Shown one piece after another: positions 43,803-49,255 of a stretch of 64,000 bases of DNA. Numbering within the stretch: position 1 is the first letter of the stretch; each line of letters begins with the position of its first letter. This stretch comes from Fervidobacterium thailandense (GTDB taxonomy: Bacteria; Thermotogota; Thermotogae; Thermotogales; Fervidobacteriaceae). The stretch spans positions 1-64,000 of the forward strand of contig NZ_LWAF01000003.1 in assembly GCF_001719065.1 (NCBI RefSeq), in the 5' to 3' direction. A program made the translations under genes and the position numbers. The notes beneath the pieces were generated by a model. It did not search any database. It saw only the letters and a list, made by a program, of their open reading frames with translations, and was not told the origin of the DNA.

Positions 43803-46694
43803 ATGGATCCTATTAACGTTCTTTGGCTTATCACCATACCGATCGTTTCGCTATTTGCGCACCTGATTTATACCGAGAGCTATTCAGTACCCAAGCATTT
43901 CTTTTTGTCAGTTGCCGCTCTAACAACTTTCTTGATTCTGTATCTAAGAGCACTTAGAAAGAAAGAACCCATCGTGATAAACTTTACAGTTTTTCACATT
44001 CTTTTTGGTCTATTTTGGATTTCTTCCACTGCTTCCATTATAAATATCGCGAGGGATAACCCCTATTTGCTGAGGTACTCTCTTGATGTAAATCTTTATT
44101 TGCTAATTTTTGTTTTCCTTTCGTGGTTTTTCTCTAACTACATGAACACAAGAGAAAAGATTGAAAAGATATTTTTAGTCTTCTTGATCGTCAGTGTCGT
44201 AGTTGCTGCAAACGGTGTTTTAAACTACTACACCGGCTACGATGTTTTTGTAGGACTATCACCGGATATAACGTACAGGGGCAGAATTAGAAGCACGATA
44301 GGTAACGTTATTTTCGTTGCAAACTTTCTGAATATGCTAACTCCATTAGCTTTGTACTTTTACCTAAAGAGTGGAACTTCAAAACTTACCAAGATACTCT
44401 CGTTCGTTTTCATTACGCTTTCCTTCTACATACTCCTGGTGGGTCAGGTTCGGTCCGAGTACATTTCCTGGGTTGTTCAAATTTTGCTCGGACTTTCTTT
44501 CATCACTCTCGAATTCTTCAGCGACAGTCGTAGCACCCGTAAAAAAGTTAGCGATTTTCTCAGGTGCGGAGTCTGGCAGTTTATTATTCTGGTAATGGTA
44601 TTGCTTGTCGTGGCTATTCTTCTCTTAGCGTTCCCTAATCCCTTGAATCACTACAAACGAATTGGAGAAATAATCTTCTCGCCTATAGAGTCAAGAATTA
44701 CGGGAGAAGTCGTTCAGGAAGATTTCATCCGGCGGAAGGTAGCGTGGCTTGCAGCCGTAGAGATCTGGAAGCGTCACAAAGTTCTGGGGCAAGGCATCGG
44801 TAGTTACAGGTATTACGGAGGAAGTGCCGTCGCAAAAGTGTGTAACGAAAATCCAAAGTACAGATTTGCATGGCAACCTTTTGACACCGTTCATAACGAC
44901 TATCTACAAGTTCTTGCAGAGGTTGGTCTGGTTGGATTTGGGATTGTATTGGCATTGTTCGTTTGGCTTTTAACTTATGTCTTTCAGAATTATAGCAAAC
45001 TCAGCGAAGATAAAAAAACTCTCTTCCTCGTATTAACTCTCTCCTTCACCCCATTTGCAGTCCAAATGTTCTTCTGCTATCCAGTTCAAATTTTACCTAA
45101 CAGCCTTCTCGCGTTGATTCTTGTCTCCACCGGAATAGGTGAATACTTCAACATTCAAAAAAACACAAAGCTTCGCGTAAAAATTTCCGCTAGAATAGTT
45201 TTCTTAATTGGCTTTATCTTCGCAACTTTGTTGGTCGTGGGCGTATTTCTTAGAGCTTCGAAGTTTTTATCAGATGTTTATTCGAGACAAGGTAAGGTAG
45301 CACTATATTCACTAAGTAGCCTTATCGAAACTGAAGAACCAAAAAATGGCGAACTCTTGAAAAACAACAGCACTGTGAGCAATACAGCTTTACAATCCTA
45401 TCAGGAAGAAATCAAAAATAACATAACAACCGCCGTACTTTCGTTGTACAAAAGTATAAAAATTAACCCATCAAATGGAATTGCTTACTACTTACTATCA
45501 AACATGTTAGGATATGATAAAACTTTGTCTATGATTCACACGAACATGAAAGAGTTCTTCGACAAGCTTTTCAAGGAATTTTGCGAAGCTTCAGCAAAGG
45601 AATTCATAAATTCTCTGGCTCACACTTTAAAAACAGAGGAACTCTTAGAGCTAAAAAGCTTATACGTTAGCCTCTCCTTGTTAGACATTTCTGAGAAGGT
45701 TTCTCTATATCCTCTTGTCCAACTTGCTAAGACTGATCGAATTTCAAGAATTATGAATAGGCTTTCCAATATGGCTCTCAAAAGTGATTTAAGTGATAAG
45801 TTACGCGTCGCTCTAAGTAACGAAATCGAGAAAAAATTTGTAGAACTCGAAAAAACTGCTTTAAAGACTATTTATGAGTTTTCCGGTGGCTGGATCACGT
45901 ACATGCATGCGAAAAATCCGGATATCGAGACGGCAACAAGAAACAAGGAAGATATACACAGAGAAGTAATACACTGTGTACTGAATTCCGGAGAGCTAGA
46001 TAGCAAGAGACTCTCCCTTGTTAAACGCATATCGGATTTTGAACGTGAAGTATGCTTAGACTTGGAGAGAAACGGATATTGGGGTATACCGGATGCAGGC
46101 CTCACGTTTTTTACGACTTTTGCAAAGCAGCTCGCCGAGAAGGACAAAGACCGTGCTCGAGAAATTCTAAAGAGTACTCTTAGAGACTACAAAGAAATTT
46201 ACAACCTCGTGGTTCAGAAGCTTGAGAAAGACTCTCGGTTTGTCGAAGAATTCGAAACTGTGAAAAAGAACATCGCTACACTACTGAAGGCAGTCCTTTC
46301 CCGTGAAAGCGCTAATCTCAATGAAATTGTTCAGGACTCGTTCAATAAAGCCTATCGAAAAGCTCTTGAAAACTTTATTAATTACGACTTTTCGAGGTAC
46401 GTCGAGATTTACATCTCTGAACTTCGGGAATCAGAATTCGGTATTCGGAAAACAATCTACGCAACGAGCCCTTGGAAATATTTTGCTACCCCCGTTATTT
46501 TCGCAGTAATGAATAATCTACAGAATATCCAGGACGTTGGTATGATTAGTAGAATCTTTGGAATTGTCCGACTCTTGGTAGATCCGTCATTTGCAACGTC
46601 GATGTTCTTGTACGAAAGGTACCAAATTTTCAAACACATGTACGAGTACGCTCAGAAAATCTATCAGCTGCTCGGTCAAGATCTCCTTCACTAA
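43803..46694 (+). CDS. Wzy_C-type membrane protein, candidate pilin O-oligosaccharyltransferase
   Basis: 963 aa. The first 480 residues hold about 11-12 membrane helices and the Wzy_C/WaaL/PglL hallmark H-N-D-Y-L-Q-V-L-A-E-V-G-L-V-G starting at His364 in a long periplasmic loop. The last half is a helical, mostly soluble domain of about 480 residues that I do not recognise; ordinary Wzy and WaaL proteins end near 400-600. The gene is visibly more A+T-rich than its neighbours. It converges with the type IV pilin gene and shares a bidirectional terminator with it. O-antigen polymerase or ligase is the alternative; pilin glycosylation is favoured by context only. Confidence 0.7.
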   Translation: MDPINVLWLITIPIVSLFAHLIYTESYSVPKHFFLSVAALTTFLILYLRALRKKEPIVINFTVFHILFGLFWISSTASIINIARDNPYLLRYSLDVNLYLLIFVFLSWFFSNYMNTREKIEKIFLVFLIVSVVVAANGVLNYYTGYDVFVGLSPDITYRGRIRSTIGNVIFVANFLNMLTPLALYFYLKSGTSKLTKILSFVFITLSFYILLVGQVRSEYISWVVQILLGLSFITLEFFSDSRSTRKKVSDFLRCGVWQFIILVMVLLVVAILLLAFPNPLNHYKRIGEIIFSPIESRITGEVVQEDFIRRKVAWLAAVEIWKRHKVLGQGIGSYRYYGGSAVAKVCNENPKYRFAWQPFDTVHNDYLQVLAEVGLVGFGIVLALFVWLLTYVFQNYSKLSEDKKTLFLVLTLSFTPFAVQMFFCYPVQILPNSLLALILVSTGIGEYFNIQKNTKLRVKISARIVFLIGFIFATLLVVGVFLRASKFLSDVYSRQGKVALYSLSSLIETEEPKNGELLKNNSTVSNTALQSYQEEIKNNITTAVLSLYKSIKINPSNGIAYYLLSNMLGYDKTLSMIHTNMKEFFDKLFKEFCEASAKEFINSLAHTLKTEELLELKSLYVSLSLLDISEKVSLYPLVQLAKTDRISRIMNRLSNMALKSDLSDKLRVALSNEIEKKFVELEKTALKTIYEFSGGWITYMHAKNPDIETATRNKEDIHREVIHCVLNSGELDSKRLSLVKRISDFEREVCLDLERNGYWGIPDAGLTFFTTFAKQLAEKDKDRAREILKSTLRDYKEIYNLVVQKLEKDSRFVEEFETVKKNIATLLKAVLSRESANLNEIVQDSFNKAYRKALENFINYDFSRYVEIYISELRESEFGIRKTIYATSPWKYFATPVIFAVMNNLQNIQDVGMISRIFGIVRLLVDPSFATSMFLYERYQIFKHMYEYAQKIYQLLGQDLLH

Positions 46695-46796: not shown

Positions 46797-46840
46797 CAAA
46801 AAATAAAAAAGGGACCTGGATTCCCAGGTCCCGCGTTTTT
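46797..46840. terminator. Bidirectional terminator between the Wzy-like gene and the pilin gene
   Basis: GGGACCTGG (46811-46819), a 4-nt loop and CCAGGTCCC (46824-46832). T-runs follow on both strands, strongest on the minus strand after the pilin gene. Confidence 0.88.
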
Positions 46841-46854
46841 CTTAAAAATTTTTA

Positions 46855-47250
46855 TTACCACCATTTCTGAATTTCGAATGTTAACGTTGTGCCGCTAACC
46901 TCAGAATAATATTCTCTAAGTTTTTCTTGATCAACATCTTTACCAGTGTAGGAAATTATAACTTTGAAAATTCCGTCGTTGTACGTTGCAGTTACATCGA
47001 AGTTAGCCGGTGCTGCCGATAGATATTTCTTATTAACAAGGTTCGTTAAAGTGATGTTGTTTGCATTCGTAGGTTTTTCTACGTTCACGTAATTTTCGAC
47101 CGCAGCCTTGACGTTTCTAAAGTTCTGCGCTACCTGGCTTGCTTTCGCGTTTTTCACAGCGTTCAGCGCCAACGGTGTTGCAACAGCCATAAGTGCCGCA
47201 ATAACCGCAAGGACGATCAAGAGTTCAACGAGCGTGAAACCTTTCCTCAT
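46855..47250 (-). CDS. Type IV pilin, probable major subunit
   Basis: 131 aa. M-R-K-G precedes F-T-L-V-E-L-L-I-V-L-A-V-I-A-A-L, a textbook prepilin peptidase site with Phe+1 and Glu+5. A C-terminal globular domain of about 90 residues follows; it ends in I-Q-K-W-W and has no cysteine pair. A strong ribosome site (AAAAGGAGG), an extended -10, an array of LytTR-type boxes and a good terminator all point to a highly expressed, regulated gene. This separates it from the minor pilin cluster at 12.7-15.3 kb. Confidence 0.88.
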   Translation of the reverse strand: MRKGFTLVELLIVLAVIAALMAVATPLALNAVKNAKASQVAQNFRNVKAAVENYVNVEKPTNANNITLTNLVNKKYLSAAPANFDVTATYNDGIFKVIISYTGKDVDQEKLREYYSEVSGTTLTFEIQKWW

Positions 47251-47307: not shown

Positions 47308-47316
47308 ATTATAGCA
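47308..47316 (-). promoter_or_regulatory. Extended -10 of the pilin promoter, no clear -35
   Basis: Minus strand TGC-TATAAT. The expected -35 position, around 47330-47336, reads CTCAAG or TCAAGT. The missing -35 suggests dependence on an activator. Confidence 0.65.
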
Positions 47317-47345: not shown

Positions 47346-47417
47346 CCAAACAGTCAACAACTACAACCGAACGGATAATTTTCGGCGCTGTACGTTTTGA
47401 GAATCTCACCGAACGTA
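47346..47417 (-). promoter_or_regulatory. Array of four LytTR-type boxes at 21-bp period
   Basis: Compared with the LytTR consensus (T/A)(A/C)(C/A)GTTN(A/G)(T/G), the minus strand holds TACGTTCGG (47409-47417, full match), AACGTACAG (47388-47396, one mismatch), TCCGTTCGG (47367-47375, full match) and ACTGTTTGG (47346-47354, one mismatch). All three spacers are exactly 12 bp. The array ends about 10 bp upstream of the pilin -35 position. A plus-strand full match, AACGTTCAG (47420-47428), lies next to it, close to the lytS promoter. Confidence 0.6.
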
Positions 47418-47434
47418 GAAACGTTCAGCGTGGA

Positions 47435-47443
47435 TGGTATAAT
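47435..47443 (+). promoter_or_regulatory. Extended -10 of the lytS/lytTR operon
   Basis: TGG-TATAAT lies about 45 nt upstream of GTG 47488. The -35 is poor. The palindrome GAACGT-AGAA-ACGTTC (47411-47426) overlaps the -35 region and joins two LytTR-like half sites. Confidence 0.65.
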
Positions 47444-47487: not shown

Positions 47488-48513
47488 GTGCGCTTCATCC
47501 TCTCACTACAAATCATCGGTGGCCTAATTTTCCTCTATACGGCTTTCATAATCCCATCAAATCTCTATTTCGCAGCTTTGTTATCGATCTTCATGCTTGT
47601 AAACACCGTCGGCATAGCTTATTACATAACGAGAAGCGTTGTGATCGGCGGCATTGGCGTTGGAAAGCCCGCGAGAAAGATACTCCTTCCAGCAGCCGTT
47701 CTGATTGCCGGAATTGTAATGCTCGCCTTCCTCATCCCGAGGATATACAAATTGTGGTCGGAAATTTACTCGTCAGAACTTTTTGTGCTTTTCATCAACA
47801 CCTTCGCCGGTGTTTCCGCGTTGTTGGTAGCTACGTTCGGTTTTGCTTATCTAAGTTTGAAAAGGGAATTTGAAGAGCAGTTGATCAAGATGCAAGAGCT
47901 CGAAAACTTGCGGATCAAGGCGGAATTGGATGCCCTAAAGTCCAAGGTAAATCCCCATTTCCTTTTCAACGCACTCGGTAGTGTGACCTCGATGCTCGAG
48001 CTCGACGCACCGAAAGAGGATGTAATCAATTATCTCAACTCTCTGGCCGGGCTTTTGAGGGCCACGGTTGATGCGCCGAGTGTATGGACTTTAAAAGCCG
48101 AGTGTGAAACCGCTGAAAAATACTTGAAAGTCCAAAAGTTTAGGTTCCAAGATAAACTATCGTACGAGATATTGCTTCCGGAGGAAATTTTAAATTTCAA
48201 AGTACCCTCACTGATTATCCAACCGCTTGTGGAGAACGCGGTGGTACACAACGTTGGTAAGGTTAACAGAACCGTTCACGTGCGAGTTAGTTGCGGTAAA
48301 ACGGAAAATGGAGTATTTATCTCGATCGAGGATAATGGATGTGGCATGAACGGAACGAGGAAAGGTTCCGGACTTACTCTCGTTGAAGAGAGGTTGAAGC
48401 ATTTTTCAAAAGGAGCAAGACTTTACGTTGAGAGTAACCCGGATGTTGGTACGACCGTCAAGGTGGTGATACCCTATGAGCAGAGTACTCAGGTGCGTCA
48501 TCGTGGAAGATGA
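47488..48513 (+). CDS. LytS-type sensor histidine kinase
   Basis: 341 aa. Four or more membrane helices (about 1-125) precede the His_kinase/HATPase region. The phospho-acceptor is His157 in N-P-H-F-L-F-N, the LytS/YpdA pattern; N-A-V-V-H-N and D-N-G-C-G-M are the N and G1 boxes. It has no 5TM-LYT or GAF domain that I could identify, so the signal is unknown. The GTG start is behind a GGGGGGAACGAT site. It overlaps the response regulator gene by 38 nt. Confidence 0.85.
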   Translation: MRFILSLQIIGGLIFLYTAFIIPSNLYFAALLSIFMLVNTVGIAYYITRSVVIGGIGVGKPARKILLPAAVLIAGIVMLAFLIPRIYKLWSEIYSSELFVLFINTFAGVSALLVATFGFAYLSLKREFEEQLIKMQELENLRIKAELDALKSKVNPHFLFNALGSVTSMLELDAPKEDVINYLNSLAGLLRATVDAPSVWTLKAECETAEKYLKVQKFRFQDKLSYEILLPEEILNFKVPSLIIQPLVENAVVHNVGKVNRTVHVRVSCGKTENGVFISIEDNGCGMNGTRKGSGLTLVEERLKHFSKGARLYVESNPDVGTTVKVVIPYEQSTQVRHRGR

Positions 48514-49255
48514 AAAGCTCCAGGCGCTCGTTTTGGAAAAGCTGCTCAAAGAATTGGGAGTCAAAGTTGAATCGATTGCTATGAACGCAAGGGAAGCGGT
48601 CGAGGTTATCAATAGCGTAAAACCTGATGTCGTCTTTCTGGATATCAACCTTGGGGATGCTGACGGTTTTTACGTGCTCGAACAAGTGTCTCACAAACCT
48701 TACGTAGTCTTCACAACCGCGTACTCCGAGTACGCCTTGAAAGCCTTCGAAGTTTACGCGATCGATTACATAGTCAAGCCTGTAACACGTGAAAGGATTG
48801 CAAAGACCATTGAGCGATTAAGAAATCTCTTGGAAAAAAGCGATGAGAGTTTCGAGGAGAGGCTACAAGAGCAGGTTCGAAGAGCCCTTGAAAGACTGCG
48901 AGAAGAGTTTTTTGGTCTGAAAAGACCGAGATTTTCGGTAGAGATAGGAGATGAGGTGGTTTTTTTGGACCCGTCGGACATACTTTACATCGAAGCCTTT
49001 GAACACGGAGCAAGGATTGCAACGAAATCCGCCGAGTACATTTCAAAAACACCGCTTAAGGAATTGGAGGAACAGCTCTCGAGTGAAGGGCTCGGACAGT
49101 TCGTTAGGGTTCACCGTTCTTACCTTGTTAACATGGACCACGTTAGGAAGATATCGAGAAATTACTTTGGGACGGTAGCACTGGTGTTATCGAATGATAA
49201 AACCATTCCGGTTGGACGCTCTTACAGAAAGGTGCTGGATGAGTACTTTTCTTGA
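48476..49255 (+). CDS. LytTR-family response regulator
   Basis: 259 aa. A receiver domain (V-E-D-E near 9-12, phospho-Asp in V-V-F-L-D-I-N, Lys in I-V-K-P) is followed by a coiled linker and a C-terminal LytTR DNA-binding domain from about 160, with F-V-R-V-H-R-S-Y-L-V-N and the closing V-G-R-S-Y-R. It is the partner of the overlapping LytS gene. LytTR proteins bind paired 9-mers 12-13 bp apart, and such sites occur in the region between lytS and the pilin gene, so pilin is the expected target. Confidence 0.88.
   Translation: MSRVLRCVIVEDEKLQALVLEKLLKELGVKVESIAMNAREAVEVINSVKPDVVFLDINLGDADGFYVLEQVSHKPYVVFTTAYSEYALKAFEVYAIDYIVKPVTRERIAKTIERLRNLLEKSDESFEERLQEQVRRALERLREEFFGLKRPRFSVEIGDEVVFLDPSDILYIEAFEHGARIATKSAEYISKTPLKELEEQLSSEGLGQFVRVHRSYLVNMDHVRKISRNYFGTVALVLSNDKTIPVGRSYRKVLDEYFS

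What the first reader, a model, noticed from the sequence alone, without database searches (positions are those of the whole stretch)
47346..47428. Four LytTR-type boxes at exact 21-bp period upstream of the pilin promoter, beside a lytS/lytTR pair
On the minus strand, 9-mers at 47346-47354, 47367-47375, 47388-47396 and 47409-47417 fit the known LytTR consensus with zero or one mismatch, and all spacers are 12 bp, the spacing known for LytTR proteins. The 8-mer ACCGAACG recurs 42 bp apart within it. The array stops about 10 bp upstream of the pilin -35 position, which lacks a -35, so activation by the adjacent regulator is the simple reading. A fifth match on the plus strand (47420-47428) could give autoregulation. 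The consensus is established knowledge; the control link is inference.
Basis: partly seen in the sequence, partly recalled or inferred. Interest (0 to 1): 0.78.

Follow-up and report, generated by a model that had tools for sequence, protein, structure and literature searches.

The report
Conserved LytTR boxes drive pilin promoter
In this heat-loving bacterium (a Fervidobacterium relative) four evenly spaced copies of a known docking site for a LytTR-type switch protein sit in front of a pilus-subunit gene, and at least seven related species keep the same layout, so the neighbouring sensor-regulator pair very probably turns on the pilus gene.

Summary
In detail: four 9-mers on the minus strand at an exact 21-bp step (12-bp spacers), with 1, 0, 1 and 0 mismatches to the LytTR consensus. 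It is the only such four-box array in the 64-kb window. Its three-box form occurs nowhere else in the 2.04-Mb genome, even at 3 mismatches, apart from one frame of the same array shifted by one step.

Pilin promoters of the sister species and of six independent Fervidobacterium-type genomes carry LytTR-like boxes at 21 bp. A leave-one-out motif test finds them in 8 of 8 genomes (p <= 0.004), against 0 of 9 relatives from genera without this regulator. The promoter-proximal box is locked 41-42 bp upstream of the -10, which is the published LytTR geometry. A motif search in relatives mostly returns pilin promoters, including second paralogues.

The array follows the pilin. lytS-lytTR is adjacent only in this genome and its sister. 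Three genomes with arrays encode a single LytTR protein, the orthologue of this regulator.

Best reading: phosphorylated LytTR regulator binds the array and activates an extended -10 pilin promoter lacking a -35. The fifth match is not conserved, so autoregulation is unsupported. Binding and activation are inferred, not shown.

The parts
47409..47417 (-). LytTR box 4 (distal), TACGTTCGG
   Evidence: 0 mismatches to consensus; sister has TGCATTCAG in the same place
47388..47396 (-). LytTR box 3, AACGTACAG
   Evidence: 1 mismatch; sister ACTGTGCGG
47367..47375 (-). LytTR box 2, TCCGTTCGG
   Evidence: 0 mismatches; sister TTCATTCAG, the same two C-to-T changes (plus-strand reading) as in box 4
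47346..47354 (-). LytTR box 1 (promoter-proximal), ACTGTTTGG
   Evidence: 1 mismatch; starts 41 bp upstream of the pilin -10, as in relatives
47420..47428 (+). fifth, plus-strand consensus match AACGTTCAG; probably not a conserved site
   Evidence: 0 mismatches but disrupted by a 4-bp gap in the sister
47308..47316 (-). pilin extended -10 TGCTATAAT, no -35
   Evidence: identical in sister
46855..47250 (-). type IV pilin-like gene, 131 aa, N-methylation signal MRKGFTLVEL
   Evidence: PF07963 30.3 bits over cut-off
46811..46832 (-). terminator hairpin directly after the pilin gene, T-rich tails on both strands; pilin is probably monocistronic
47435..47443 (+). lytS extended -10 TGGTATAAT; its -35 region overlaps box 4 and the fifth match
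   Evidence: conserved in sister
47488..48513 (+). LytS-type sensor histidine kinase, 341 aa, hydrophobic N-terminal part, NPHFLFN motif
   Evidence: PF06580 and PF02518 over cut-off
48476..49255 (+). LytTR response regulator, receiver + LytTR, 259 aa; carries FVRVHRS (209-215), the family's FhRhHRS motif
   Evidence: PF00072 and PF04397 over cut-off; alignment A3

Best explanation
The array is a cis-regulatory element of the pilin promoter, made of four LytTR-binding half-sites on one face of the helix (21 bp = two turns), i.e. two adjacent direct-repeat pairs. The membrane kinase LytS (47488-48513) phosphorylates the LytTR response regulator (48476-49255). The phosphorylated regulator binds the array cooperatively, with its promoter-proximal subunit about 9-10 bp upstream of the missing -35. 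It recruits RNA polymerase to the extended -10 and switches on the single-gene pilin transcript. Shown here: the array, its conservation, its fixed register with the -10, the domain content of the proteins, and co-occurrence with the regulator. Inferred: phosphotransfer, binding, cooperativity, the activating sign, and the unknown signal.
For: (1) Unique in window and genome. (2) With no motif assumed, 21 bp is the best of 22 candidate periods (12-33 bp) in the pilin promoters of G000, G012, G009, G002 and G016, and also of G006 once the first pilin of its cluster is used; it is never the best four-box period in 9 relatives of other genera. (3) Leave-one-out motif test: 8/8 genomes with p <= 0.004, 0/9 outgroup promoters. 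(4) The proximal box starts 41 bp (six genomes) or 42 bp (two genomes) upstream of the -10. Published LytTR promoters have 12-bp spacers and repeats about 10 bp upstream of the -35 (PMC6193735), which gives the same 41-42 bp. (5) TTG-type -35 starts occur in 9/9 outgroup pilin promoters but 1/8 arrayed ones. (6) A three-box pattern search over 11 genomes gives 8 hits, 6 of them upstream of pilins, including second pilin paralogues in G002, G017 and G016. (7) G006, G009 and G017 have one LytTR protein each, the orthologue of this regulator; genera without the orthologue lack the array. (8) Boxes 2 and 4 changed in parallel between sister species (CCGAACG to CTGAATG in both), while spacers drifted (boxes 23/36 vs spacers 14/36 identical, p = 0.06).
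Against: No binding or expression data. The sister species' array is weak when scored alone (self-similarity p = 0.14), and G015 keeps only two clear boxes. In Fervidobacterium-type genomes lytSR lies elsewhere, so the regulator-target link there rests on co-occurrence. The array-bearing genomes are one clade, so co-occurrence may be a single event. Box sequences in that clade are more T-rich than the canonical consensus. The matrix boxes were picked by eye in the 21-bp phase; leave-one-out testing reduces but does not remove that bias.
Confidence: 0.87

Rival explanations
1. The boxes are LytTR sites but the regulator represses the pilin, or mainly represses its own operon: bound at box 4 and the fifth match it would cover the lytS -35 region.
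For: Box 4 (47409-47417) and the fifth match (47420-47428) overlap the -35 region of the lytS promoter, whose extended -10 is at 47435-47443. The pilin extended -10 could work without an activator.
Against: The fixed 41-42 bp distance is to the pilin -10 and is kept where lytS is elsewhere. The sites lie upstream of the core promoter, not over it. Arrayed promoters have lost the TTG -35. The fifth match is not conserved.
Confidence: 0.08
2. The 21-bp repeats are intrinsic DNA curvature or an UP element (phased T-tracts) that helps RNA polymerase without a LytTR protein.
For: In several Fervidobacterium-type promoters the repeated cores are T-rich (TTTCAT) and lie on one helical face.
Against: In G000, G001 and G006 the repeats are GTTCGG, ATTCAG and GTTCAT, not A/T tracts. 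Positions 2 (C), 4 (G/T), 7 (C/T), 8 (A/G) and 9 (T/G) are constrained. Period 21, not 10-11, is selected (one search tested 12-33).
Confidence: 0.04
3. Another direct-repeat regulator (for example an OmpR/PhoB-type protein, or the second LytTR protein on contig C4) binds the array.
For: G000 also encodes a second LytTR regulator, 38-39% identical.
Against: G006, G009 and G017 have arrays but only one LytTR protein, the orthologue of the window's regulator. PhoB-type repeats step by 11 bp (own knowledge), while the period here is 21. The motif fits the LytTR consensus.
Confidence: 0.05

Closest known systems
AlgZ(FimS)/AlgR of Pseudomonas aeruginosa at the fimU-pilVWXY1Y2E promoter (PMC4064291)
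   Same: LytS-type membrane kinase plus receiver-LytTR regulator that activates type IV prepilin genes; AlgR binds CCGTTTGGC at fimU, close to the boxes here.
   Different: AlgR sites are often not 12-bp-spaced direct repeats and the regulon is broad. Here there are four strictly phased boxes, the motif searches find almost only pilin targets, and the phylum is distant.
LytTR direct-repeat promoters of LRS operons (HdrRM and relatives; PMC6193735)
   Same: 9-bp repeats, 12-bp spacer, repeats about 10 bp upstream of the -35, often with an extended -10.
   Different: LRS are membrane inhibitor + LytTR pairs without phosphorelay and mainly autoregulate. Here there is a kinase and a receiver domain, 3-4 boxes instead of 2, no -35, and a pilin target.
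AgrA of Staphylococcus aureus at agr P2/P3 (PMC4227749)
   Same: Receiver-LytTR activator binding direct repeats upstream of promoters with poor -35/-10 spacing, from a divergent intergenic region.
   Different: Paired repeats and a quorum-sensing signal; AgrA also controls its own operon.

Membership tests
LytTR response regulator | Receiver domain followed by LytTR DNA-binding domain | tested here: met
   PF00072 70.7 bits and PF04397 87.8 bits, both over cut-off; FVRVHRS fits FhRhHRS
LytTR response regulator | Cognate LytS-type (PF06580) kinase encoded with it | tested here: met
   PF06580 70 bits; genes overlap by 38 nt
LytTR-binding direct-repeat promoter | 9-bp boxes fitting [TA][AC][CA]GTTN[AG][TG] | tested here: met
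   mismatches 0,1,0,1
LytTR-binding direct-repeat promoter | Spacer of 12 (11-13) bp | tested here: met
   exactly 12 bp in G000 and in relatives
LytTR-binding direct-repeat promoter | Repeats about 10 bp upstream of the -35 position | tested here: met
   9 bp to the position of a -35 at a 17-bp spacer; 41-42 bp to the -10 in 8 genomes
LytTR-binding direct-repeat promoter | Bound by the LytTR protein | not testable with these tools
   needs gel shift or footprint
LRS (LytTR regulatory system) | LytTR regulator controlled by a membrane inhibitor, no kinase or receiver | tested here: not met
   kinase and receiver domains present
AlgZ/AlgR-type pilus control | Regulator activates type IV pilin genes | tested here: inconclusive
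   boxes upstream of pilin genes in 8 genomes; expression untested

The most novel reading that the evidence does not exclude
A pilin-dedicated LytSR system in the Fervidobacterium clade. Its regulon is almost only pilin promoters, it binds as an ordered four-subunit array at 21-bp steps, and its box sequence and regulator co-evolve: GTTCGG-type boxes with Arg at the AgrA N201-equivalent position (residue 214) in this genome, TTCAT-type boxes with Lys in relatives.
Probability: 0.3. Interest if true: 0.6.

Novelty: new member of a known kind. Interest (0 to 1): 0.48.

Why it matters
The searches of the held library returned no paper describing LytTR control of pili in Thermotogota; the library is incomplete. 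A transcription element conserved across about eight thermophile species predicts how these bacteria control type IV pilin, and hence possibly attachment or DNA uptake, from one signal. Natural sequence drift in a phased four-box array with a single regulator per genome gives a clean test of how LytTR specificity evolves and whether more than two subunits bind in tandem.

Tried and rejected
Exact consensus pair search genome-wide: 3 hits against 5 in the reversed-pattern control, so exact pairs are uninformative and missed this array, whose neighbouring boxes alternate 0 and 1 mismatch. Searching upstream of lytS in relatives for arrays: none outside this genome, which first looked like non-conservation until the pilin orthologues were checked. 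Fifth-box autoregulation: rejected on sister comparison. A GTDB-contig scan with the pilin alignment added names (sister contig JAUQPP010000034.1; G006 = Fervidobacterium sp. UBA5837) but no further genus members. Search of G001 with the LytTR family found nothing, because its regulator is cut by a contig end at residue 157. The two G015 pattern hits away from pilins lie in or next to coding frames with no -10, rejected as background. One multi-protein Pfam scan and one alignment failed on an in-frame stop and were not repeated.

Full report
On the minus strand four 9-mers lie at an exact 21-bp step with 12-bp spacers: 47409-47417 TACGTTCGG, 47388-47396 AACGTACAG, 47367-47375 TCCGTTCGG and 47346-47354 ACTGTTTGG. 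They have 0, 1, 0 and 1 mismatches to [TA][AC][CA]GTTN[AG][TG]. Single matches are common, but over periods 19-24 and both strands this is the only four-box array in the window with at most 2 mismatches in total, and shuffles gave none. A three-box pattern fitted to these boxes, searched over the 2.04-Mb genome with 3 mismatches allowed, finds only this array and one shifted frame of it.

Surroundings. The minus-strand gene at 46855-47250 is a 131-aa type IV pilin-like protein (PF07963). It has an extended -10 (TGCTATAAT, 47316-47308) and no recognisable -35 (2/6), and a terminator hairpin directly follows it (46811-46832). The divergent genes are a LytS-type kinase (PF06580 + HATPase) and, overlapping it by 38 nt, a receiver-LytTR regulator. 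The regulator's FVRVHRS matches the FhRhHRS motif whose residues contact DNA in AgrA (PMC4227749). lytS also has an extended -10 (TGGTATAAT, 47435-47443).

The pilin-lytS divergent pair exists only here and in one sister species of the same genus (G001), with the sister contig named. The intergenic alignment has no gap across the four boxes. Boxes 2 and 4 both change from CCGAACG to CTGAATG, boxes are 64% and spacers 39% identical (p = 0.06), and the fifth, plus-strand match is broken by a 4-bp gap. This pair alone is suggestive, not decisive; the sister array scored on its own is weak (p = 0.14).

The decisive step was to follow the pilin instead of lytS. Orthologous pilins in the neighbouring genus (one member is Fervidobacterium sp. 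UBA5837) lie far from lytSR but carry the same kind of array. With no motif assumed, the best repeat period among 12-33 bp is exactly 21 in G000, G012, G009, G002, G016 and G006 (G017 is nearly identical to G002 and not counted). It is never the best four-box period in nine promoters of three other genera. A position matrix trained without the tested genome detects three boxes at 21 bp in all eight genomes (p <= 0.004) and in none of the nine outgroup promoters (p >= 0.2). Pilin promoters of further Thermotogales score far lower: below 9, against 14 or more for every array hit reported.

Register with the promoter. The proximal box starts 41 bp (G000, G001, G002, G006, G012, G016) or 42 bp (G009, G015) upstream of the -10. 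Published LytTR operon promoters have a 12-bp spacer and repeats about 10 bp upstream of the -35 (PMC6193735), which is the same geometry. A -35 beginning TTG is found in 9 of 9 outgroup pilin promoters but 1 of 8 arrayed ones (Fisher p = 0.0004; this comparison was chosen after seeing the sequences). That fits an activator replacing the -35.

Target specificity. A three-box pattern searched in 11 genomes with one mismatch gave 8 hits, and the reversed control gave 2. Six hits lie upstream of pilins, including second pilin paralogues in G002, G017 and G016, whose boxes sit 41-43 bp from a -10. The two others are in G015, in or beside coding frames with no -10.

Which regulator. All array-bearing genomes hold the orthologue of the window's regulator. 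In G006, G009 and G017 it is the only LytTR-domain protein. The other genera of the family have no LytTR protein or a different one, and no array. The paralogous LytTR protein on contig C4 of this genome is therefore a less likely binder. Because the array-bearing genomes form one clade, this co-occurrence may be a single evolutionary event.

Mechanism. The best-supported model is activation: LytS phosphorylates the regulator, which binds four half-sites on one helical face and recruits RNA polymerase to an extended -10 promoter without a -35. Phosphotransfer, binding, sign and signal are inferred. Repression of lytS through box 4 is possible but not conserved.

Comparison with known systems. 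It works like LytTR direct-repeat activation (AgrA, LRS operons) and most resembles AlgZ/AlgR control of type IV prepilins in Pseudomonas, where AlgR binds CCGTTTGGC at fimU (PMC4064291). It differs in having three to four strictly phased boxes, an apparently pilin-focused regulon, and a Thermotogota host. No paper on LytTR pilus control in Thermotogota turned up in the held library, which is incomplete. I file it as a new member of a known kind.

A speculative extension: residue 214, equivalent to the DNA-contacting AgrA N201, is Arg here and Lys in the relatives with TTCAT-type boxes, which may reflect co-evolution of specificity. It is one change on one branch and untested.

Noticed in passing
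window 43803-46694 (+): A 963-aa membrane protein with an O-antigen ligase (Wzy_C) domain ends convergently beside the pilin and is kept next to it in the sister species; it could be a pilin glycan ligase.
   Followed up: partly
L193, L109, L197 (G002, G017, G016): Second, divergent pilin paralogues in the same clusters carry their own 21-bp LytTR-like arrays 41-43 bp upstream of a -10 (TAAAAT).
   Followed up: yes
L113:3470-3500 (Fervidobacterium sp. UBA5837): The first of two near-identical tandem pilin genes, the one behind the array, has ACG where the second copy has its ATG start; it may be a silenced copy, an unusual start or an assembly error.
   Followed up: no
G000 contig C4:130553-131849 (L001): A second LytS/LytTR pair, 38-39% identical in the regulator, without a LytTR array in the stretch fetched.
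   Followed up: partly
window 48476-48513: lytS and lytTR reading frames overlap by 38 nt, suggesting translational coupling.
   Followed up: no
window 48476-49255, regulator residue 214 (alignment A3): Arg in this regulator, Lys in all aligned relatives, at the position equivalent to DNA-contacting N201 of AgrA; box sequence also differs between these groups.
   Followed up: partly
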